Shown here in pieces: positions 4,635 through 42,419 of a stretch of 64,000 nucleotides of DNA. The stretch lies in assembly GCF_014174165.1 (NCBI RefSeq), contig NZ_JABEQN010000004.1, positions 124,001-188,000 on the forward strand. Reading direction: 5' to 3'. Numbering within the stretch: the first letter of the stretch is position 1; every line of letters begins with the position of its first letter. The translations under genes and the position numbers were made by a program. The stretch is from Gluconacetobacter dulcium (GTDB lineage Bacteria > Pseudomonadota > Alphaproteobacteria > Acetobacterales > Acetobacteraceae). The notes below the pieces were generated by a model, which searched no databases, was not told the DNA's origin, and worked only from the letters and a program-made list of their open reading frames with translations.

Positions 4635-5234
4635 ATGTTTGATTTCGCATGGTCCGAGATGGCGCTGATCGGTGTCGTCGCCCTGTTGCTGATCGGGCCA
4701 AAGGACATGCCGGTGGCGATCCGCACCGTCACCGGTCTGATCAAGAAGGCCCGCAAGATGGCCTCGGAATTTCAGACCCATGTCGATGAGATGGTGCGCG
4801 AGGCCGACCTGACCGAGGCGCGGGATACGCTGAGCGGCATCCGGCGCTTCAATGTCCGCAACCAGATCATGCGGGCGATCGACGATGACGGAACGCTTCA
4901 GCGCACCTTCAACGAATCGCCGCTGGATACGCGGCCCGGAGCACCGCTGGTCCCGCCGCTGGGCGCGGCACCCGGTTACGATCCGGACGGGCAGCATCGT
5001 TATGGCTATGTGCCGCCGGCGCAGCCTCGGGACGATGCAGCCTTTCCGGCGGTCGTCGATGCCGGTCCTGCGCCCGCCCTGCTGCCGCCTGCCGTGGCGC
5101 GGCGGCTGGCGGCCGATCGGGCGCGGCTGCATCCGCCCGCTTTCCTGCCGCCGGTGCGGGTGATCCATGGGGCGCGGCGCGTGCCGGTGGATGCGCCCGG
5201 TGCGCGCACGGTGCACGCGGGAGAGCCGACGTGA
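4635..5234 (+). CDS. tatB: Sec-independent protein translocase TatB
   Basis: The N-terminal membrane anchor MFDFAWSEMALIGVVALLL followed by GPKDMPVAIRT and an amphipathic helix is the TatB pattern; TatA proteins usually start differently and are only 60-90 residues. At 199 residues with a Pro-rich tail it fits TatB, which with TatC recognises twin-arginine signal peptides. The stop overlaps the tatC ATG by one base. Several genes in the window encode likely Tat substrates (EfeB, cupin, MltB-like protein, amine dehydrogenase light chain). No separate tatA is visible here. Confidence 0.92.
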   Translation: MFDFAWSEMALIGVVALLLIGPKDMPVAIRTVTGLIKKARKMASEFQTHVDEMVREADLTEARDTLSGIRRFNVRNQIMRAIDDDGTLQRTFNESPLDTRPGAPLVPPLGAAPGYDPDGQHRYGYVPPAQPRDDAAFPAVVDAGPAPALLPPAVARRLAADRARLHPPAFLPPVRVIHGARRVPVDAPGARTVHAGEPT

Positions 5235-6076
5235 TGGACGAGTCCAAGCCGGGAGCGACGAACCTGAACGACGACAATCGGAGCCATGGCGATCCGATCA
5301 ACGACCAGCCGATGCCGCTGCTGGAACATCTGGTCGAATTGCGGCGCCGCCTGATCTGGTCGGCGGCGGCGTTCGGACTGTGTTTCCTGCTGTGCTACCA
5401 TTTCTCGGCGCGGATCTATCTGTTTCTCGCCCAGCCGCTGGGCGACGTGATGCGCGCACAGGGCGAGCAGCCGCATCTGATCTATACGGCGCTGTATGAA
5501 GCCTTCTTTACCTACATCAAGGTGGCGATCTTCGGCGCGGGGTTCCTGTCCTTTCCGATGGTGGCCATGCAGGCGTGGATGTTCGTGGCGCCGGGGCTGT
5601 ATCGCAGCGAGAAGCGGGCCTTTCTGCCGTTTCTGGTCGCGACCCCGATCATGTTCGTGATGGGGGCGGCGCTGGCCTATTATTTCGTCTTTCCCTTCGC
5701 CTGGAAATTCTTCCTGTCGTTCCAGACCGCCGACGGGCAGGACGGGCTGCAGATCCAGCTTCAGGCCAAGGTGTCGGAATATCTCGCGCTGGTCATGAAG
5801 CTGATCATGGCGTTCGGCGTGGCGTTTGAACTGCCGGTGGCGCTGACGCTGCTGGCGCGGGTGGGGATCGTGACCGCCGCCACGCTGAAACGCTTCCGGC
5901 GCTATGCCTATGTGGGGGCTTTCGTGATCGCGGCGATCCTGACGCCGCCGGATATCATCACCCAGACCGGTCTGGCGGTGCCGCTGATCGGGTTGTACGA
6001 AATTTCCATCATCTGTGCGCGCATGGTTCAACCCAAGCGCCCCGAGGACCCGGACCAGGAGAATTCCGATGCATGA
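5234..6076 (+). CDS. tatC: Sec-independent protein translocase TatC
   Basis: A 280-residue polytopic membrane protein with six predicted helices, the core receptor of the Tat system. Family marks include [14 protein letters not shown] near residue 30, the segment FEAFF-like [11 protein letters not shown] near 90, [12 protein letters not shown] near 117 and AAILTPPD near 235. The ATG at 5234 is preceded in frame by a GTG at 5231; ATG is preferred. Its end overlaps the serS start by 8 bases, so tatB-tatC-serS is one transcription unit. The C-terminal tail is short and charged. Confidence 0.96.
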
Positions 6077-7343
6077 CCTTCGCGCGCTCCGCGCCGATCC
6101 GGCCGCTTTTGACGCATCCCTGACGCGCCGGGGCGATGCCCCCGTTGCCGGTCATGTGGTGCGGCTGGACGAAGACCGGCGTGCCGCCGTCACGGCGTTG
6201 CAGGATCGGCAGGCCCGGCGCAAGACGCTGTCGAAGGAGATTGGAACCCTGCGGCGGACGGGAGCCGACAGCGCGGCGCTGGAGGCAGAGGCTGTTGCGC
6301 TGCGCGAGGAGATCGAGCGGCTTGAAGCGGTGGTCCGGGATTGCGATGCCGAAATCCGCGATCTGCTGGTGACGCTGCCCAACCGGCTGGATGAGGCCGT
6401 GCCCGATGGGGCGGACGAGGCCGCCAATGTGGTCGTGCATCAGGTCGGCGAGCGGCGGAACTTCGCCTTCGCCCCGCGCGAGCATTTCGCGCTGGGCGAG
6501 GCGCTGGGCATGATGGATTTCGAGACCGCGTCCAAATTGTCCGGTGCGCGCTTCGTGGTGCTGCGGGGGGCGCTGGCGCGGATGGAGCGGGCGCTGGGGC
6601 AGTTCATGCTCGACCTGCATGTGCAGGAGCATGGCTATACCGAGACGGCGGTGCCGGTGCTGGTCAATGAGGCCGCGATGTTCGGCACCGACAAGCTGCC
6701 GAAATTCGCCGACCAGTCCTTCCGCACCGAGGACGGGCGCTGGCTGGTGCCGACCGCCGAGGTGCCTCTGACGGCCAGCGTGGCGGGGGACATTCTGCCG
6801 GGGGCGGCCCTGCCGCGCCGGATGGTGGCGCTGTCCTCCTGTTTTCGCAGCGAGGCCGGGGCATCCGGCCGCGATACGCGGGGCATGCTGCGGCAGCACC
6901 AGTTCCAGAAGGTGGAGATGGTGTCTGTCACCCGGCCGGAAGACAGCGACGCGGAACTGGAGCGCATGACACGATGCGCCGAGACGGTGCTGGAGCGGCT
7001 GGGCATTCCCTATCGCCGCATGCTGCTGTGCGCCGGCGATACCGGTTTCGGTGCGGCGAAGACGTTCGACCTGGAAGCGTGGCTGCCGGGGCAGGATGCG
7101 TGGCGGGAGATTTCGTCGTGCTCCACCACGCGCGATTTCCAGGCGCGGCGGATGAATGCCCGTTTCCGGCCGGCCGAAGGGGCCGCGCCGGAGTTTGTCC
7201 ATACGCTCAACGGCTCCGGCCTGGCGGTCGGGCGCACGTTGATCGCGGTGATGGAGAATTACCAGAACGAGGACGGCAGCATCACGGTGCCGGAGGTGCT
7301 GCGGCCGTATATGGGTGGGCTTGCGGTGGTGGGAGTGCCCTGA
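6069..7343 (+). CDS. serS: Seryl-tRNA synthetase
   Basis: A 424-residue class II synthetase charging tRNA-Ser. It begins [15 protein letters not shown], the usual SerRS start, so the ATG at 6069 is chosen over upstream in-frame codons. Residues about 25-110 form the coiled-coil arm that contacts the tRNA long variable arm. Class II motif 2 is visible as [16 protein letters not shown] near residue 256, and motif 3 as [16 protein letters not shown] near 382. It overlaps tatC by 8 bases. The gene is convergent with the small lipoprotein gene, with only 14 bases between their stops. Confidence 0.97.
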
Positions 7344-7357
7344 CGCGCGCCGGGGCG

Positions 7358-7540
7358 TCAATATTCCCCGCCCAGATTGAGTTGCGGTCGGTTCGCGACA
7401 CCGGGTGACGGTGGATCGAACTGTCGGAATGCGTTTTTCGGCGGAGCGGGGCGCTGGGGTGGAGGGGCGTGCGCGCAGGAGGCGAGCAGCGTGACAAGGG
7501 CGATTCCGAACCATCGCGAAATCGCCTTTATCCCGTGCAT
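7358..7540 (-). CDS. Small lipoprotein, last gene of the efeB operon
   Basis: A 60-residue protein with a clear lipoprotein signal: basic n-region, hydrophobic WFGIALVTLLAS core, then the invariant Cys of the lipobox (LLASC at residues 18-22). The mature part is about 38 residues, Pro-rich and without a known fold. Its ATG directly follows the efeB TAA (no gap), so it is translated with efeB. Role unknown. The context (OprB porin, propeller, EfeB) suggests an envelope-anchored accessory of that system. I do not recognise a family. Confidence 0.7.
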   Translation of the reverse strand: MHGIKAISRWFGIALVTLLASCAHAPPPQRPAPPKNAFRQFDPPSPGVANRPQLNLGGEY

Positions 7541-8740
7541 TTACGCCTCCAGAAGCCGTTGGCCCACATAGTCGCCGGACGCGCGTCCGGGGCAGGCGAA
7601 CAGGCCGCCGCCGACATGGGTGGTGAACTGGTTCATCATATCGAATTTCGACATGCGTTCGAAGATTTTTGTGAAACCGGTACGCGGGTCCTGCTGATAG
7701 GCGAGGAACATCAATCCGGCGTCGAACTCGTTGCCCTGGCGCCACGGCGGCCATCGTTCGGCGACGTAGCTCAAACCGTTGTCATAGGCATAGGCGCGCC
7801 TCAGAATCTGGGCGCCCTCATTTTCCTCGGGAGCCGCGAGGCGCGCGTGGGCGCCCTGGGCCGTGACGGGGTTGCCGTCCTTGTCCATCTGCTTCAGCGT
7901 CAGGGGTTGGAACTCGCGGTGGCCGCCGATGGGCGCGCCGCTCTGTTTCTGGCGCCCCATGGTCTGTTCCTGGAACCCGACTTTCATCCTGTCCCAATGT
8001 TCCAGCGCCATGCGGATGATGCGCGCGACCAGATAGGTTCCGCCCTGCATCCAGGGCAGATCGTCCGGCGCGGCCCAGAGGACGCGATCGGCGACCTTGG
8101 GGTCGTCGATGTCGGGATTGATCGTTCCGTCCTTGAAGCCCATCAGGTTGCGCGGCGTTTTGCCCTTGCCGAAGCTCGGCATGAAGCCGGTCTGGGCCCA
8201 GCGGGGCGTTGCCGTGTCGTAGGCGAGCGCCGCGAGGACGCGTATGGCGTGAAACGCTGTCTGCGGATCGCCCGCGCAACTCTGGATGCACAGATCGCCG
8301 CCCGTATGGGCCGGGACGAGTTGATCTCCGTTGAAACGCGGAAGATCGGCCAAGGGCGCCGGACGCCGGGCGGCCAGATTGTAACGATCCTTGCCGTCCT
8401 TGAGGAACAGGCCGGGGCCGAAGCCGAAGGTCAGCGTCAGACCCTTCGCCGACAGCCCTTCCGCGTCTTGTGGATCGACGAAGCCGGGGACGGGCCGTCC
8501 GGCCATCAACGCATCGGCCGCCATGCTCCAGCGCCGCATCAGCGCGGCGACGTCCTGACGCTTTTCGGCGGTCAGGTCGAAGGCGATGAAATAGAGAAAG
8601 GGCTGTTGCGGCGTCGCGATCCCCGGTTGGTGCGGCACGGAAGGCGTTATGGCGAAAGCGGGTGACGAGGCGAGCAGGTGCGTGCCCGCAACGCCCAGCG
8701 CCGCACTGAGAACGGCGCGGCGCGGCAGTGAAATGATCAT
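7541..8740 (-). CDS. efeB: Tat-exported DyP-type heme peroxidase EfeB
   Basis: A 399-residue deferrochelatase/peroxidase of the DyP superfamily. The signal MIISLPRRAVLSAALG carries a twin arginine and ends at an AFA site. The DyP signature GFKDGT is at about residue 195 and supplies the catalytic Asp; a conserved His and Arg expected later are compatible with the C-terminal half. EfeB binds heme in the periplasm and has been reported to take part in iron acquisition. ATG at 8740 with GAGG just upstream is preferred to the TTG at 8755. The usual partners efeU and efeO are absent; instead a porin and a beta-propeller gene lie upstream. Confidence 0.9.
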   Translation of the reverse strand: MIISLPRRAVLSAALGVAGTHLLASSPAFAITPSVPHQPGIATPQQPFLYFIAFDLTAEKRQDVAALMRRWSMAADALMAGRPVPGFVDPQDAEGLSAKGLTLTFGFGPGLFLKDGKDRYNLAARRPAPLADLPRFNGDQLVPAHTGGDLCIQSCAGDPQTAFHAIRVLAALAYDTATPRWAQTGFMPSFGKGKTPRNLMGFKDGTINPDIDDPKVADRVLWAAPDDLPWMQGGTYLVARIIRMALEHWDRMKVGFQEQTMGRQKQSGAPIGGHREFQPLTLKQMDKDGNPVTAQGAHARLAAPEENEGAQILRRAYAYDNGLSYVAERWPPWRQGNEFDAGLMFLAYQQDPRTGFTKIFERMSKFDMMNQFTTHVGGGLFACPGRASGDYVGQRLLEA

Positions 8741-8751
8741 AGCCGGTCGCC

Positions 8752-9918
8752 TCAAGGCGCGCTCAGATTGAGCGTGTTCATATCATCCTCGACATAATAG
8801 AAACCTTTGTTGTCCGGTGTCATGGCCAGGCCGAAGAGATCGCCGTTGCCGGGCGGTTGCTGCGCCTGGTCGCTGTCCACCCATTGCGCGTAGATCTGTT
8901 TTTTGGCGTCCGGGTCGATTTCGACGACCTGCCCGTTGCGCCCGTTGGCGACCAGCAGGTGATGTCCGGGCACCCAGATCATCGCCAGGGGCCAGTTCAG
9001 CAATCCCCCCTTGGTAATGACCCGCCCCACCGCGTCGTTCTGGCGTGTGACCGGGTCCGTGCGGTTCACCGCATTGTCGATGGCGGTGACTTCCTCGTCA
9101 TACCCGTCGGTCACGTAAAGCGTGCCATCGGTGTCGAGGGCGAGGCCGGTCGGGCCAAAGAGAAAATTGTCGCGATCCGCGCGTCCGGCGAACCCGCTGG
9201 CGACGACCGTCTGCTTTTCGAGAACCGGCGGCTGACCAGATGGAATGCGCAGATTCATCCGCAGTACGGTCGCATTGTGCAGGATCGGCGGATAATGGGT
9301 GACGGGGTCGCGCACATCGGGCGCCGGCAGGCCGGCGGCGGCCATCGAGATGAACAGCACGGCGGAATCGCCGTTATCGATGCTGGCGATATCGCCCCAT
9401 GGGCCGGTGATGAGGGGTCCCTTCCATGCCTCGGTGAACGTGCCGTTGGCGTCGAAGACGAGCACGCAACCGTCGCCCTTCGTCCCGGTCGTGCCGTCCT
9501 TGCTCGGCGTGCTGCCGACAATGACCCACCCGGATTTCAGGATTGTCAACGCGGTCGTAAAGCCGATTCCTCCCGGGCAGGCGGCAAGGTTGGGTGGCAC
9601 GCTCGCAAAAAGCCGCGATGTCTTCGTCGCGGGCGAATAGACGACAAGCGTCGTGCCGGTCCCTTGAAGATTGGTGATGTTGTTGAAATTCGTGACCATC
9701 ACCTCGTCCTTGTGCAAGACACCCATGTCTTGCGGCACCAGGAAGACGGCGTAGGGGTTCAGGTCGCCATTGCCGGGGCTTGTGGAAGCGAGCATCATGT
9801 GGCGGTGGATCGTCTCCAGGAAGCCTTTGGGGGCCGCCGCGGCATGTTGGCTCCCGCAGGCCCAGGCGGCGCCGACAAAGGCAAGGGCGGAGAGAATGGA
9901 GCGCATCGTGGGTCTCAT
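8752..9918 (-). CDS. Exported NHL/SMP-30-like beta-propeller protein
   Basis: A 388-residue protein with a signal peptide (about 1-28, ending near AAAAP) and repeated propeller strands such as FGPTGLALDTDGTLYVTDG near residue 262 and FGLAMTPDNKGFYYVEDD near the C-terminus. No catalytic residues can be assigned, so binding or lactonase-like activity are both open. Its stop lies 11 bases before the efeB ATG and it follows the porin by about 120 bases, so it is the second gene of the porin-efeB operon. ATG at 9918 is chosen because it opens the signal peptide; TTG at 9951 and ATG at 9906 are alternatives. Confidence 0.75.
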   Translation of the reverse strand: MRPTMRSILSALAFVGAAWACGSQHAAAAPKGFLETIHRHMMLASTSPGNGDLNPYAVFLVPQDMGVLHKDEVMVTNFNNITNLQGTGTTLVVYSPATKTSRLFASVPPNLAACPGGIGFTTALTILKSGWVIVGSTPSKDGTTGTKGDGCVLVFDANGTFTEAWKGPLITGPWGDIASIDNGDSAVLFISMAAAGLPAPDVRDPVTHYPPILHNATVLRMNLRIPSGQPPVLEKQTVVASGFAGRADRDNFLFGPTGLALDTDGTLYVTDGYDEEVTAIDNAVNRTDPVTRQNDAVGRVITKGGLLNWPLAMIWVPGHHLLVANGRNGQVVEIDPDAKKQIYAQWVDSDQAQQPPGNGDLFGLAMTPDNKGFYYVEDDMNTLNLSAP

Positions 9919-10000
9919 GAGGTTTGCACCCGGAGCATTTCCACCGAACAACAGGTTCGATGGAAATTTTCTGGTTTGTTGTTTTTTACGAGCGGTTTAA

Positions 10001-10028
10001 CCTTTTCGAACGCACGCGTTCAAAAAGG
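10001..10028 (-). terminator. Strong hairpin just after the oprB gene
   Basis: A 12-bp stem (10001-10012 with 10017-10028, a single mismatch that becomes G-U in RNA) closes a 4-base loop. It starts 8 bases beyond the porin stop and lies before the propeller gene. On the minus strand no uninterrupted U-run follows, so it is more likely a partial terminator or an mRNA-stabilising 3' end that lets the porin be made in excess over the downstream genes. Confidence 0.55.
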
Positions 10029-10035
10029 ATATGCT

Positions 10036-11523
10036 CTAGAAAGCGATGTTCGAGCGGAGGCCGATGACCGCGATGTCCTTGATCCGCCGGTCGGGATGGA
10101 GCGGATTGGGCACGCCGCCCGAGGGGTTGAAGATGTACTGGAAATCGGGCTGCAATTGCAGCCAGCCCGTCATCTGGCATTGGTACATCAGTTCCATGTA
10201 GGATTCGCCGCCCTGCGCGGGGCTGTAGGCGCCGGTATATCTGCGAACGGCACGATCGTAATTCGCCAGCGCGCTGCTGACATGGGTGTACCCCATGGCG
10301 AGGCCGAGCGTATCGTCCTGCCGGTACGGCAGCGGGTCTTTGAAGGTGAAGCCGAAATTCATGCTGAAATCGATGGGAACACGATCGGCCTGGGGCGTGC
10401 CCATGGCGCGGCCAAAGACGTTGAATGTCCGGTTGGGATCGACATGGCTGCGCCAGAGCATCTGGTCCGCGACCGCATAGAAACTGAACGCGCCCCGATG
10501 GGTCAGGGCTGTGCCGTTACTGGCGGGCGAGGCCAGCGCATTGCCCGTATTGTCCCAATACTGGTCGGAAAATGGTTCCGAATCATACCATCCGCCAATA
10601 CGGTAGACGCGCGAAAGCGCCTCTACCTCATCGGGCGAGACCATGGCCCCCAGCCCCGGATAAACATATTGGAATTCCACGATCGCCATGACGCCTCGAT
10701 TGAGGACGAAACTGGTGCCCGACCGATTGCTCTGCTGGGCGTCGCCCGAGACGTTATAGGCCGGGCTGCCGCTGAAGATGCCAGCTTGCACGTAAAGCGG
10801 CGTCGTAAGCCAGTATTTGCCGCGCACGCCAAGCGCGGATAGCGGATAGGCTGGACCGCCGCCCGGCAGATCGGCGGAGGGGACCATCGGCCAGCCGAAC
10901 ATGGTGTTGGCGAACACAAGCGCGTTGCTGCTGACCATCCATTCCTGATCGAGACTCTGTTGGCCGATCTTGATGTCCAGCTTCTGCTGGTCGAGAAGCT
11001 TCTGATCGAACCAGAGTTCCCAAAGCCGCGTCGAACGGTCGGCTTCGATGCCGCTGATGGTCTGATAGGCGTCGAGATTGTCGGCGCTGAGGTTGCGGCC
11101 GTGGACCTGCTCCATGCTGACCTGGAATGTTCCGCCATACCAGCCGAAGGCGCGCTGGGTGTTCATCTGAAGTACTGCCACGGTCAGGCCGTCATAATCG
11201 GCACCGCGACGCATGCCGCCGGAAGGATTGCCGAACACCTCGGATGTTTCCTGGACGGCGAGTACGATACCGGCTTTTCCCAGTTCCGAGCGCAGGCCCC
11301 ACATGTTGCCGAGCAGATTCGCGCTGCGCTTCCAATTGTCGAGAAAACCGAAGACGCCGTTTGACGATTCGTCTCCGGCCGCCGCTGCGTTACCCATATT
11401 GACCATCGGCGCGACCGCGTGAGCGCTGGTGCCGGTAAGCAGAAACGTTACGATGAAGCCACATATTCGCCGGGAGTGAGGATTCTTCCCGCCTTTTTGT
11501 CTGATGCGCTCACGATAAGACAC
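10036..11523 (-). CDS. OprB-family carbohydrate-selective porin
   Basis: A 495-residue outer-membrane beta-barrel. After a signal peptide (hydrophobic CGFIVTFLLTG, cut near SAHA) the mature N-terminus has the OprB-type start with LGNMWGLRSELGKAGI. Later blocks typical of the family include KIGQQSLDQEWMVSSN, the GWPM segment, and a C-terminal strand ending in Phe (LRSNIAF). I start at the GTG at 11523 because the AT-rich promoter region and the Fur-box-like array lie just upstream; the frame itself opens at a TTG at 11583. First gene of the operon with the propeller, efeB and lipoprotein. The substrate is unknown and sugar transport should not be assumed. Confidence 0.85.
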   Translation of the reverse strand: MSYRERIRQKGGKNPHSRRICGFIVTFLLTGTSAHAVAPMVNMGNAAAAGDESSNGVFGFLDNWKRSANLLGNMWGLRSELGKAGIVLAVQETSEVFGNPSGGMRRGADYDGLTVAVLQMNTQRAFGWYGGTFQVSMEQVHGRNLSADNLDAYQTISGIEADRSTRLWELWFDQKLLDQQKLDIKIGQQSLDQEWMVSSNALVFANTMFGWPMVPSADLPGGGPAYPLSALGVRGKYWLTTPLYVQAGIFSGSPAYNVSGDAQQSNRSGTSFVLNRGVMAIVEFQYVYPGLGAMVSPDEVEALSRVYRIGGWYDSEPFSDQYWDNTGNALASPASNGTALTHRGAFSFYAVADQMLWRSHVDPNRTFNVFGRAMGTPQADRVPIDFSMNFGFTFKDPLPYRQDDTLGLAMGYTHVSSALANYDRAVRRYTGAYSPAQGGESYMELMYQCQMTGWLQLQPDFQYIFNPSGGVPNPLHPDRRIKDIAVIGLRSNIAF

Positions 11524-11551
11524 TTGTTTCGTTCCATGCAGATGCGACTTA

Positions 11552-11610
11552 ATATTAATTTCATGTGCGGCAATGTTTTGCAATAGATTTTCATAATCAT
11601 TCTCATTTTC
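11552..11610 (-). promoter_or_regulatory. Fur-box-like array and promoter of the oprB-efeB operon
   Basis: On the minus strand, bases 11610-11587 read as four tandem hexamers GAAAAT, GAGAAT, GATTAT, GAAAAT. The inner 15-mer TGAGAATGATTATGA (11605-11591) matches the 7-1-7 Fur consensus TGATAATnATTATCA at 12 of 14 defined positions. It is an isolated AT-rich island in very GC-rich DNA. A possible -10 (TAATAT, 11557-11552) follows 20 bases after TTGCAA. Iron regulation of an EfeB operon is biologically coherent. The responsible regulator could be Fur or another Fur-family protein. Confidence 0.7.
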
Positions 11611-11728: not shown

Positions 11729-14218
11729 TCAGCGCGTCCGGAGGCTCTTGCCGCGCGGTCTGTCTGTCCGCTTGTAGGTGTTCGGACCAGGGGGGTGATC
11801 GCTGGATCTGCCGTCGCCGGATTGGCTGCGAGGTCCATGACCGGGGTGTTTCGATACCGGGCGTCCCCGCCCGGCTTCGTCCGCGCGGGCGCGGCTGCTC
11901 TGCTGGCGCAGAACGTCTTCGATCCAGTCGTTGAGGCGGGCGGTGGCGTCTTCGGCGTCTTCGCTCGCGCGGTAGGCGTCGGGGAAGCGCAGGGCCAGCC
12001 AGCGCCAGGCGACCAGGCGCTTGTGGCGTTTTTCCGCGCGTTCCAGCTCGACGCGATCGGCGCGTTCGGCGGGGGGGAGGCGGCCGGTGCCGGGGGGAAT
12101 GACCGGACGGTCGGCGGCGTGATCGGCGGCCCACTGGACGAGGCGCTGGATGCCGTTGTCGCGGTCGTCCACCGGGCACATCGCATAGACCCAGCGCTGG
12201 GCCAGCGTCAGGCCGGTGACACCTTCCAATGCGGTGGCGATGGCGAACGCCTGCTCCATGTTGGCCAGGCGGTAGTTCGGGTCGTCATGGCGCAGCACGG
12301 CGCGGCGGATGCGCGACAGCACGCCGAACAGGCTCTCGGACCCGATTTCGGCCGCGACCGCCTGGATGATGTCGGAATCGGGCTGGACCTGCGGGCGCAG
12401 GTCGGTCGGTTCGGCCGGTGGCGCGGCGAGCATGGTGCGCACGAACGCGGCGCTACCCGCGCCGGCCAGCACCGCCACGATGCCCTGTTCGTGCTTGCCG
12501 TAGCGGCCGGCGCGGCCGCCGATCTGCTTGACCTCCTGCGCGTTCAGGTCGCGGGTCTGGGTGCCGTCGAACTTGCGCAGGGCGGTGAAGATCACGCGCC
12601 GGATCGTCAGGTTCAGGCCCATGCCGATGGCGTCGGTGGCGATCAGGATATCGGCGGCGCCGTCGTTGAAGCGCTGGGCTTCGGCCCGGCGGACCTCGGG
12701 GCTGAGGGCGCCGTAGACCACGGCGACCTTGCGGCCGCGTGCGACCAGCAGGGCGCGCAGGTCCAGCACCTCGCGCCGTGAGAAGGCGATCAGCGCGTCA
12801 TGCGGTTTCAGGTCCTTGATCTGGACCGCCTCGCTGGCGGTGACCAGCGGGCCTTTGCGTTCCAGTCGGACTTCATCCAGCGGGTCGCCGCAGAGTTCGG
12901 CGATGCGGCGGACCATCGGCACGCAGTCAGGGGCGCCCAGTACGTAGAGGTGCCGCGCGGGGGCGCCCATGATCGCCGCCGTCCAGGCCGCGCCGCGATC
13001 GGGGTCCGACAGCATCTGGGCTTCGTCGATGATGGCGACGTCGACGGGGTTGTGCAGCGGGCACATCTCGACCGTGGCGGCAAGGTGGCGGCTGCCGGGG
13101 ACGTCGATCCGCTCTTCGCCCGTTGCCAGCGAGGTGGGGACGCCGCGCGCGGTCAGGGCTTCGCGGAATTCGTGGGCCAGCAGGCGCAAGGGGGCCAGGG
13201 CCATGCCGCTTTCGGCCCGTGCCAGGGCTTCCAGCGCCGTGTGGGACTTGCCGCTGTTGGTCGGGCCGGTGACCAGGGTGATCCGGCGCTTCAATGCGCG
13301 TGCGGTCTTGAAATGTGCGGCGTAGCGATCGAGTGCCGCGACGCGGGCGATGACGGCGTTGCCGACCTTGCGGGTGCCGGCGTCGGGAACCAGGGCGGGG
13401 GTGGTGGGGGCGCCGCCGCGCCATTCCGGCAGGTGCTTGCGCAGCGCCACCAGTTCCCTGGGGTCGAATTCCCAGTGCTCCGTGCCGTCCGGCTGCGGCA
13501 CGCGGCGGGCGACGGGCAGGCGGTTTTCGGCGATCCAGCGCAGGGCTTCCTTGCCCGAGCAGCGCAGCAGGCGGGGGACCTCGGAGAAGCCGACCAGGCT
13601 GGCTTCCCATTCCTGCAGCCGGCGTTCTTCCTCGGTGCGGCGGGTGCGGGCGGCCTGTTCGATGGCCTCCTGTTCCTGCCGCCTGATGTCGGCGTCGCGC
13701 CGCATGCCCTCGACGAAGCCCGAGCGCGGGTCCAGCGCGAAGGCTTCGGCCACCGCGCGCGACAGGGTTTCGGTCTCGGCGGGGGTCAGGACGCGGCCGG
13801 TGCCGTCGAACAGGTCGGCGCGGATGGTTTCGACCGCCGCCTCGGGGGTGGGGGCGGTGGCCCGCAGGCGCGCGCGGATGACGGCGGACAGCGCATCGAG
13901 CAGCCGGGCGTCATCGGGTTCGGGGTCCTCGATCGTGGCGGCGGCGGCTTCGGTATCCGCGCGGGTGACCCACACCTGGCCCGACCGGCGGGTGAGGTCC
14001 ATCAGGCGCGAGCCCCACGGCTTGCGGCGTACGGTACACAGCGCCGCGCGGAAAGTTGCATCGTCGACGCGATCCTGCCCCGGTGTCAGGGCACGGGCGA
14101 TCGTGCGTTCCAGTTTGGGCAGTTCGCGGGTTTCGACGGTCAGGCCGGTTTCGGCAATGGCGGCGGCGACGGCGCTGACGGCGGGGGAATTGGATGTCAT
14201 ATCCGGTTTGTGCGCCAT
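11729..14218 (-). CDS. SUV3-type superfamily 2 RNA helicase
   Basis: An 829-residue helicase resembling mitochondrial SUV3 and its alphaproteobacterial relatives. Walker A is GPTNSGKSHTAL near residue 313 and the motif II box is IIDEAQ near 384. The second RecA domain carries YGALSP and motif VI as KQIGGRAGRYG near 548, matching the SUV3 QIAGRAGR pattern. About 290 residues precede the helicase core and contain no domain I can name; the C-terminus is a basic, low-complexity tail. SUV3 proteins unwind RNA in degradosome-like complexes; here the role is inferred. It is divergent from the ferredoxin-NADP reductase gene. Confidence 0.85.
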   Translation of the reverse strand: MAHKPDMTSNSPAVSAVAAAIAETGLTVETRELPKLERTIARALTPGQDRVDDATFRAALCTVRRKPWGSRLMDLTRRSGQVWVTRADTEAAAATIEDPEPDDARLLDALSAVIRARLRATAPTPEAAVETIRADLFDGTGRVLTPAETETLSRAVAEAFALDPRSGFVEGMRRDADIRRQEQEAIEQAARTRRTEEERRLQEWEASLVGFSEVPRLLRCSGKEALRWIAENRLPVARRVPQPDGTEHWEFDPRELVALRKHLPEWRGGAPTTPALVPDAGTRKVGNAVIARVAALDRYAAHFKTARALKRRITLVTGPTNSGKSHTALEALARAESGMALAPLRLLAHEFREALTARGVPTSLATGEERIDVPGSRHLAATVEMCPLHNPVDVAIIDEAQMLSDPDRGAAWTAAIMGAPARHLYVLGAPDCVPMVRRIAELCGDPLDEVRLERKGPLVTASEAVQIKDLKPHDALIAFSRREVLDLRALLVARGRKVAVVYGALSPEVRRAEAQRFNDGAADILIATDAIGMGLNLTIRRVIFTALRKFDGTQTRDLNAQEVKQIGGRAGRYGKHEQGIVAVLAGAGSAAFVRTMLAAPPAEPTDLRPQVQPDSDIIQAVAAEIGSESLFGVLSRIRRAVLRHDDPNYRLANMEQAFAIATALEGVTGLTLAQRWVYAMCPVDDRDNGIQRLVQWAADHAADRPVIPPGTGRLPPAERADRVELERAEKRHKRLVAWRWLALRFPDAYRASEDAEDATARLNDWIEDVLRQQSSRARADEAGRGRPVSKHPGHGPRSQSGDGRSSDHPPGPNTYKRTDRPRGKSLRTR

Positions 14219-41847: not shown

Positions 41848-42419
41848 CGGGAGGGACTCCGCACATTGGCCACGATCCGGCCGACGAGAAGAATGGTCAG
41901 GGCGAAGCCTCCCATTCCGGCCCATTTCCATGCACCCAGATGGGTGATCAGGAAATGGCCGACCTGTAGCGATACCGCGAAGAGCAGCGTTGTCCAGATC
42001 AGGGTTGCCAGGATCGCCGCCAGCGCGAAGCGCCGCACCGATGCGTTGAAGAACCCGCAGGCGGTATAGAGCGGCAGGCGCGCGCCGGGGATGAAGCGGC
42101 TGATGAACACGATACGGAACACGTTGCGGCCGAACCAGTTTCCGCCGTTTTCATCCTGGGGAACCTTGACCCAGCGCCGGGCCGCGGGCCACAGGGCCGC
42201 CAGCCTGCCCAGGCCGTACAGGCCCAGATCGCCGGCCACGATCCCGACATAAAGTGCGAGTAAGGCAACGGGCAGGGCGACCTGGCCGGTCTGGACCTCC
42301 ATCGCCGTCAGGATGGTCGCGGCGTCTTCGAGGATGAAGGTGCCGATAATGATGACCAGTGCCTGGACGACAGGCGCTGCCCCGGCTTTGGCGAACAGGG
42401 CGGAGAGTGAGGGAAACAT
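41844..42419 (-). CDS. DedA-family (VTT domain) membrane protein
   Basis: A 191-residue polytopic protein. FISRFIPGARLPLYTACGFF near residue 108 is the diagnostic DedA motif (F/YxxRxxPGxR), and membrane-embedded acidic residues (FILEDAATIL near 29) are the usual second feature. DedA proteins are linked to lipid-carrier transport, membrane potential and drug tolerance; some flip undecaprenyl phosphate. Translationally coupled to the ATP-grasp gene downstream. It is divergent from the MltB-like gene across a 228-base gap in which I see no clear promoter. Confidence 0.85.
   Translation of the reverse strand: MFPSLSALFAKAGAAPVVQALVIIIGTFILEDAATILTAMEVQTGQVALPVALLALYVGIVAGDLGLYGLGRLAALWPAARRWVKVPQDENGGNWFGRNVFRIVFISRFIPGARLPLYTACGFFNASVRRFALAAILATLIWTTLLFAVSLQVGHFLITHLGAWKWAGMGGFALTILLVGRIVANVRSPSR

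What the first reader, a model, noticed from the sequence alone, without database searches (positions are those of the whole stretch)
7358..11610. Fur-box operon pairing an OprB porin, a beta-propeller and a DyP peroxidase EfeB without EfeU/EfeO
Four export-directed genes are packed on one strand: porin, propeller, EfeB, small lipoprotein. In known EfeUOB systems EfeB works with a permease and EfeO, both absent here. A striking tandem-hexamer Fur-box array lies right at the porin promoter. This suggests an iron-responsive outer-membrane/periplasmic route in which heme or a ferric chelate passes the porin, is bound by the propeller and is processed by EfeB. The family assignments are firm; the joint function is inference.
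Basis: partly seen in the sequence, partly recalled or inferred. Interest (0 to 1): 0.75.

Follow-up and report, generated by a model that had tools for sequence, protein, structure and literature searches.

The report
Fur-box porin, propeller, DyP iron cassette
Acetic-acid bacteria and some relatives carry a small set of genes, probably switched on by iron shortage, that joins an outer-membrane pore, a propeller-shaped protein and a heme peroxidase; it looks like an iron-uptake system that does without the usual partners of that peroxidase.

Summary
On the minus strand lie an OprB porin, a secreted beta-propeller, a Tat-type DyP peroxidase and a 60-aa lipoprotein-like ORF, with two overlapping Fur-box-like sites ahead of the porin. 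Porin, propeller and DyP are a conserved unit: of 82 non-redundant loci the DyP directly follows the propeller in 74 (3 more are cut by contig ends), the porin directly precedes it in 63, and EfeO/EfeU were found in none. Of 299 genomes of the bacterial family, 58 carry this DyP type, all 58 with the propeller. Fur-box-like sites recur upstream in held-out loci (18 of 26 above the 95th percentile of controls). In 13 of 82 loci FbpA/HitA-type ferric transporter genes lie alongside, in six arrangements. The window genome lacks EfeU (FTR1) and EfeO (M75). The DyPs form one clade marked by an ERWPPW hairpin (83 of 83; 0 of 9 other DyPs). Best reading: a Fur-regulated iron-acquisition module that works like EfeUOB, with the propeller in EfeO's place and FbpABC or another carrier in EfeU's. 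Heme as cargo is unsupported. No description was found in ten paper searches. No experiment supports it yet.

The parts
11586..11610 (-). two overlapping Fur-box-like 19-mers (11592-11610 and 11586-11604), four GATAAT-like hexamers
   Evidence: 15/19 and 14/19 to the classical consensus on the coding strand, best in the window, 0 of 2000 shuffles; scores above the 99th percentile of 1406 control regions with a motif trained on other loci
10036..11583 (-). OprB-family porin (likely real start GTG at 11523)
   Evidence: Pfam PF04966 293 bits; directly upstream of the propeller in 63 of 82 loci
9998..10031 (-). inverted repeat / hairpin between porin and propeller genes
   Evidence: folding only, function untested
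8752..9951 (-). secreted NHL/SMP-30-like beta-propeller (likely real start ATG at 9918), proposed periplasmic partner of the DyP
   Evidence: alignment of 34 sequences, 66% mean column identity; model pLDDT 86.7; Foldseek; Pfam NHL in 28 and SGL in 16 of 34
8830..8865 (-). propeller residues 363-374, conserved loop partly modelled with low confidence; candidate ligand or partner site
   Evidence: invariant residues A363 Q364 P366 G368 G370 D371 L372 F373 G374; pLDDT under 50 at 363-369; role inferred
7541..8740 (-). DyP-type peroxidase of an EfeB-sister clade, Tat-type signal (LPRRAVLS)
   Evidence: Pfam DyP N and C; TIGR01412 366.9 bits, below its 428 cut-off; clade support 97/98
7742..7759 (-). 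ERWPPW hairpin (DyP residues 328-333), signature of cassette DyPs
   Evidence: in 83 of 83 cassette DyPs, 0 of 7 other DyPs and not in the two other DyP loci of this genome; between strands 313-328 and 334-349 of the model
7358..7540 (-). 60-aa ORF with lipobox-like LASC, lineage-specific
   Evidence: starts at the DyP stop; a relative only in G. diazotrophicus loci among L012-L089; no Pfam or NCBIfam match

Best explanation
This is a conserved, Fur-repressed iron-acquisition module that works like EfeUOB but is built from other parts. SHOWN HERE: porin, propeller and DyP are a conserved unit; the propeller-DyP pair is its most constant core; Fur-box-like sites lie upstream; EfeU and EfeO genes are not beside it; ferric ABC transporter (FbpABC-type) genes are beside it in a minority of loci. 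INFERRED: iron shortage lifts Fur repression. The OprB-type porin lets small iron species (Fe2+, or ferric chelates of small sugar acids or phenols) into the periplasm. The Tat-exported DyP uses peroxide to oxidise Fe2+ to Fe3+, or to oxidise the chelator, and so delivers Fe3+. The propeller is its dedicated periplasmic partner in EfeO's place: it binds the iron species or hands it on, perhaps docking on the ERWPPW hairpin. Fe3+ then enters by FbpABC where that is present. In the window organism, in which FTR1 and that FbpA were not found, the inner-membrane carrier is unknown; FeoB is present but, by established knowledge, carries Fe2+.
For: Linkage in 82 loci. Co-occurrence: 58 of 58 genomes with this DyP type have the propeller, among 299. 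Fur-box-like sites in held-out loci, 18 of 26 above the 95th and 13 of 26 above the 99th percentile of 1406 controls, and in the window. FbpABC genes in 13 of 82 loci, six arrangements; their binding protein is closest to ferric-binding HitA (3e-76), SfuA and FbpA. Bacterioferritin in L072 and L087, cupredoxin in L074 and L077. The cassette DyP is related to EfeB, an iron-uptake protein. Published: matched partner specificity of FepA/FepB and EfeO/EfeB (PMC3577903, passages); an OprB-domain porin needed for normal iron content in Synechocystis (PMC8707739, passages); G. diazotrophicus Fur complements an E. coli fur mutant (PMC9368920, abstract).
Against: No transcript, Fur-binding, uptake or enzyme data. 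69 of 82 loci have no linked FbpABC within the stretch held. The window genome lacks FTR1, M75 and any match to the linked FbpA (the last without positive control), so no ferric carrier is identified there. 8 of 26 held-out upstream regions lack the motif. FTR1 presence is not lower among cassette genomes beyond chance (18 of 58 against 95 of 241, p 0.29). The G. diazotrophicus iron RNA-seq main text parts read do not name these genes. OprB is best known as a sugar porin. The propeller's ligand is unknown.
Confidence: 0.5

Rival explanations
1. Heme-iron route: heme enters, the propeller binds it and the DyP removes its iron (deferrochelation) in the periplasm.
For: E. coli EfeB and S. aureus FepB bind heme and drive heme-iron use with their partner (PMC3577903, passages). 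Periplasmic iron release from heme would still suit a linked FbpABC.
Against: In those tests heme entered through a dedicated outer-membrane receptor, HasR. I noticed no heme receptor or heme ABC transporter in the neighbourhoods read (read by eye, not searched with models). OprB-type pores are known for small sugars (recalled).
Confidence: 0.15
2. Fur-regulated peroxide or phenolic defence: the DyP protects the envelope from peroxide or plant phenols when iron is scarce; porin and propeller bring in or bind the organic substrate.
For: The DyP keeps the GFKDG motif and a conserved H and RR in the C-terminal half (catalytic roles recalled). Peroxide defence and iron are often co-regulated (recalled). 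69 of 82 loci have no linked FbpABC.
Against: Near-constant pairing with one propeller family and, in 63 of 82, one porin is odd for a scavenger; six arrangements with ferric transporter genes.
Confidence: 0.15
3. Oxidative use of a small organic ligand (sugar acid lactone or phenol) with Fur control only secondary: OprB imports it, the SMP-30-like propeller hydrolyses it, the DyP oxidises it.
For: OprB is a carbohydrate-porin family; 16 of 34 propellers hit the SMP-30/gluconolactonase Pfam model and Foldseek lists lactonases; many hosts are acetic-acid bacteria.
Against: Fur-box-like sites across clades, neighbouring ferric transporter, bacterioferritin and cupredoxin genes; no catabolic gene recurs beside the cassette in the clustering across different lineages.
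Confidence: 0.1

Closest known systems
EfeUOB / FepABC / YwbLMN siderophore-independent iron transporters
   Same: An exported (Tat-type) DyP of the EfeB superfamily with a dedicated periplasmic partner, Fur-box-like control, iron context
   Different: No EfeU (FTR1) or EfeO (M75) in the window genome and none near 82 loci; partner is a beta-propeller; an OprB porin is added; the DyP is a separate clade with an ERWPPW hairpin
FbpABC / HitABC / SfuABC ferric iron ABC transporters
   Same: Genes of this type lie beside the cassette in 13 of 82 loci and could take EfeU's part
   Different: Not found in the window genome (no positive control); by themselves not known to need a DyP, propeller or porin (recalled)
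OprB carbohydrate-selective porins, incl. SLH/OprB iron porins of cyanobacteria (Slr1908)
   Same: OprB Pfam family; Slr1908 shows that an OprB-domain porin can matter for iron (PMC8707739, passages)
   Different: Closest solved relative is Porin B 4gey at 3e-23; conserved operon with propeller and DyP; substrate untested
NHL / SMP-30 / lactonase beta-propellers
   Same: Fold: Foldseek probability 1.00, TMq up to 0.56 in the 50 rows shown; NHL in 28 and SGL in 16 of 34 homologues
   Different: 10-18% identity in the rows shown; sequence matches to solved chains cover only one repeat-like stretch; function unassigned

Membership tests
EfeUOB iron transporter | EfeU: FTR1-family permease | tested here: not met
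   no PF03239 match in the window genome; search rang in 4 of 14 control genomes; no EfeU match in 82 loci
EfeUOB iron transporter | EfeO/EfeM: M75 domain protein | tested here: not met
   no PF09375 match in the window genome; search rang in 4 of 14 control genomes; no EfeO match in 82 loci
EfeUOB iron transporter | EfeB: NCBI equivalog TIGR01412 | tested here: inconclusive
   window DyP 366.9 bits, below the 428 cut-off; cassette relatives L090 465 and L058 452 pass
EfeUOB iron transporter | Fur control and iron response | tested here: inconclusive
   Fur-box-like site in the window and in relatives; binding and expression not testable here
OprB porin | PF04966 above its curated cut-off | tested here: met
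   293.2 bits against 22.9
OprB porin | selectivity for small carbohydrates | not testable with these tools
   needs conductance or uptake assays
DyP-type peroxidase | DyP N and C domains, GXXDG motif | tested here: met
   PF04261 112 bits, PF20628 146 bits; GFKDG
DyP-type peroxidase | heme binding and peroxidase activity | not testable with these tools
   needs purified protein
SMP-30 / gluconolactonase propellers | PF08450 match | tested here: inconclusive
   16 of 34 homologues at E up to 0.01, but not the window protein

The most novel reading that the evidence does not exclude
A so far undescribed type of Fur-controlled iron importer found in alpha-, beta- and gammaproteobacteria: an OprB-type porin as outer-membrane entry, and an EfeB-sister DyP that docks through its WPPW hairpin on a dedicated beta-propeller standing in for EfeO. 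The Fe3+ it delivers goes to FbpABC or to a still unknown carrier instead of EfeU.
Probability: 0.4. Interest if true: 0.75.

Novelty: new variant of a known kind. Interest (0 to 1): 0.6.

Why it matters
What EfeB-type DyP peroxidases do in iron uptake is unsettled (peroxidase/iron oxidation or heme deferrochelation are both reported; PMC9174327, passages). A natural system that keeps the peroxidase but changes its partner, adds an outer-membrane pore and in several lineages adds a ferric ABC transporter is a test bed: it argues for delivery of Fe3+, names a new partner protein, and suggests how siderophore-independent iron crosses the outer membrane in acetic-acid and soil bacteria. It also suggests that some 'carbohydrate porins' and 'hypothetical' propellers in these genomes are misnamed iron genes.

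Tried and rejected
Anti-phage defence: no PADLOC model matches porin, propeller or DyP. Tat linkage: tatC/serS matches lie beside the cassette only in the window (1 of 82), so this is the insertion site, not a conserved link. SUV3-like helicase upstream: likewise 1 of 82. Lipoprotein-like ORF as a fourth core gene: rejected, relatives only in G. diazotrophicus among L012-L089. Plain replacement of EfeU: FTR1 presence does not differ significantly between cassette and other genomes. Plain mismatch counting against the E. coli Fur consensus and a first leave-clade-out motif separated poorly, partly because control regions overlapped the site itself; redone without overlap. Limits: the motif was seeded with the classical consensus, and the control ORFs (200 aa or more, both strands) include spurious ones. 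The FbpABC label rests on solved relatives and on the record's annotation; NCBIfam gave only sub-threshold hits, the best to aminoethylphosphonate transporters. One search used the window, L042-L091 and L094-L133; L092 and L093 were left out beforehand, L087 was dropped as a fragment, and the short-flank loci L012-L041 were not counted. The sigma-70 scan gave nothing above its shuffles at the porin. The hairpin was tested only by folding. The Solirubrobacterales record L081 gives the same match pattern as L101 from a window-family genome, so its label, and perhaps those of other odd-phylum MAGs (L071, L084), may be binning errors. (solitary distant propellers L092, L129) showed no neighbouring gene that I could tie to a function.
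Full report
WHAT IS THERE. On the minus strand of the window lie, in transcription order, an OprB-family porin (ORF 10036-11583), a secreted beta-propeller (8752-9951), a DyP-type peroxidase (7541-8740) and a 60-aa lipoprotein-like ORF (7358-7540). Propeller and DyP are 11 nt apart and the last ORF starts right after the DyP stop; porin and propeller are separated by about 117 nt (to the likely ATG) holding a hairpin.

WHOLE GENOME. The assembly (4.41 Mb, 76 contigs) has three DyP genes, eight OprB-like matches including this porin and one such propeller. It has no FTR1/EfeU, no M75/EfeO and no Cupredoxin_1, each with control genomes ringing, and no match to the linked FbpA (no positive control); it has a FeoB match.

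A CONSERVED CASSETTE. One scan of named genomes with the propeller gave 48 loci: Acetobacteraceae (Bombella, Parasaccharibacter, Asaia, Gluconacetobacter, Neokomagataea, Saccharibacter, Endobacter, Acidisphaera), Acidocella, Dyella, Rhodanobacter, Novosphingobium and MAGs of several labels. One search took the window, L042-L091 and L094-L133 (91 in all), dropped L087 as a fragment, and dereplicated to 82. In these the DyP directly follows the propeller in 74, is absent in 4 (L073, L074, L104, L129), cut by a contig end in 3, and in 1 (L066) the DyP match is broken into pieces further off. The porin directly precedes the propeller in 63, lies elsewhere nearby in 6, is absent in 11 and cut off in 2. 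EfeO or EfeU (E. coli queries) match none. For L104 the same genome has the DyP on another contig. L129 holds a divergent (37-40%) solitary propeller. No other gene cluster recurs beyond related genera in the named loci (after the three cassette genes the widest cluster is in 7 of 48), so the linkage is not a by-product of general synteny.

CO-OCCURRENCE. Among 299 genomes of the family, 62 have a propeller match. 58 have a DyP at 52% or more identity to the window's, and all 58 are among the 62. The four propeller-only genomes are G091 (divergent), G094 and G191 (partial matches) and G128 (contig ends behind the propeller). Five further genomes have a DyP of 42-45%; in all five an FTR1 match lies 2-3 kb away on the same contig, and none has a propeller match. 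FTR1 as such is found in 18 of 58 cassette genomes and 95 of 241 others (p 0.29): no exclusion at that level. Only 2 of the 6 other same-genus genomes listed have the propeller. Phylum-wide it is rare: 4 of 398 genomes have strong matches, two of them in the window's own family, the window genome included; 5 others match weakly over a short stretch.

THE DyP IS A SEPARATE CLADE. It matches NCBI's EfeB model at 366.9 bits, below the cut-off of 428, while cassette relatives L090 (465) and L058 (452) and an E. coli EfeB (618) pass. In a tree of 34 cassette DyPs and 7 others (five beside EfeU and EfeO genes, one beside efeU, one beside neither), the cassette DyPs are one side of a branch with support 97/98 (seven outgroups are few, one on a long branch). 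All 83 cassette DyPs examined (72 distinct at under 95% over the core; one a fragment) carry ERWPPW; none of the seven others does, nor do the two other DyP loci of this genome. In the model (pLDDT 84.2, lower at this place) the motif lies between two long strands, as an elongated hairpin.

THE PROPELLER. 34 sequences share 66% mean column identity. The model matches NHL, Drp35, lactonase and designed Pizza propellers at 10-18% identity; Pfam gives NHL in 28 and SMP-30/gluconolactonase in 16 of 34. The loop at 363-374 is conserved yet partly modelled with low confidence, a candidate ligand or partner site (inference). Distant solitary relatives exist (L092 34%, L129).

REGULATION. A 19-bp motif seeded with the classical Fur consensus and refined on 42 non-redundant porin upstream regions converged on GCGAATGATAATCATTCGC. 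In 26 held-out regions, 18 exceed the 95th and 13 the 99th percentile of 1406 control regions that do not overlap the site; the window, not used in training, scores 18.4 against a 99th percentile of 13.8. The training loci give 39 and 37 of 42. Eight held-out loci lack it; in three of them (L107, L114, L115) the porin stands behind the DyP.

LINK TO FERRIC IRON. In 13 of 82 loci FbpABC-type genes lie within the stretch held, in six arrangements read: Fbp-porin-propeller-DyP, Fbp-propeller-DyP-porin, Fbp-propeller-DyP, porin-propeller-DyP-Fbp, propeller-DyP-Fbp, and divergent. In Paraburkholderia largidicola the record reads carbohydrate porin, hypothetical protein, efeB, iron ABC substrate-binding protein, permease, ATP-binding protein. 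That binding protein's best solved relatives are ferric-binding HitA (3e-76), SfuA, YfuA and FbpA, with NNYYW aligned (iron role of the tyrosines recalled). Bacterioferritin lies beside the cassette in L072 and L087, a cupredoxin in L074 and L077. Against this, 69 of 82 loci show no such transporter.

MECHANISM. Best reading: Fur de-represses the operon in iron shortage; small iron species pass the porin; the Tat-exported DyP oxidises Fe2+ or the chelator; the propeller, in EfeO's place, binds or relays the product; FbpABC or another carrier imports it. Linkage, co-occurrence, operator conservation and the ferric-transporter neighbours are shown; every transport and chemical step is inferred. 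EfeB's own role is reported both as peroxidase and as heme deferrochelatase (PMC9174327 and PMC3577903, passages), and FepA/FepB and EfeO/EfeB worked only as matched pairs, which fits a dedicated partner. An OprB-domain porin matters for iron in Synechocystis (PMC8707739, passages). Heme remains possible for the DyP, but nothing found here points to it.

IN PRINT? Ten full-text searches of the open PubMed Central library listed no title or abstract start that describes this cassette; beyond listings I opened four papers. Of the G. diazotrophicus iron RNA-seq paper (PMC9368920) I read the abstract, part 1 of Results, part 1 of section 3.2, section 3.3 and the legends, and searched its main text: porin, DyP, OprB, efeB and deferrochelatase do not occur. 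Subscription papers and supplements were out of reach, so absence from print is not proven.

VERDICT. A real, conserved and, as far as searched, undescribed variant on the EfeB theme; an iron role is likely, the mechanism open.

Noticed in passing
window 4635-7343 (+): tatB, tatC and serS lie convergent to the cassette; tatC/serS matches are near the cassette only here (1 of 82 loci).
   Followed up: yes
window 11729-14218 (-): SUV3-like helicase (Pfam) directly upstream of the Fur box; near the cassette only here (1 of 82).
   Followed up: yes
L042, L055, L069 (Bombella, Parasaccharibacter) about 6773-8272: A tandem second porin (65-66% to the window's) just upstream of the cassette porin.
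   Followed up: no
L092 7001-7936 and L129 8001-9149: Solitary distant propellers (34-40%) without DyP or porin beside them: possible outgroup for the propeller's original role.
   Followed up: partly
window 9998-10031: Strong hairpin between porin and propeller genes, perhaps setting different expression of porin and downstream genes.
   Followed up: partly
window 42345-42363: The only other place in the window with 14/19 to the classical Fur consensus.
   Followed up: no
   Followed up: partly
L084 7509-9910: Upstream of the porin-less cassette of an Oligoflexia MAG lies an ApbE-like gene (my reading of the sequence) and a putative exported protein without Pfam match.
   Followed up: no
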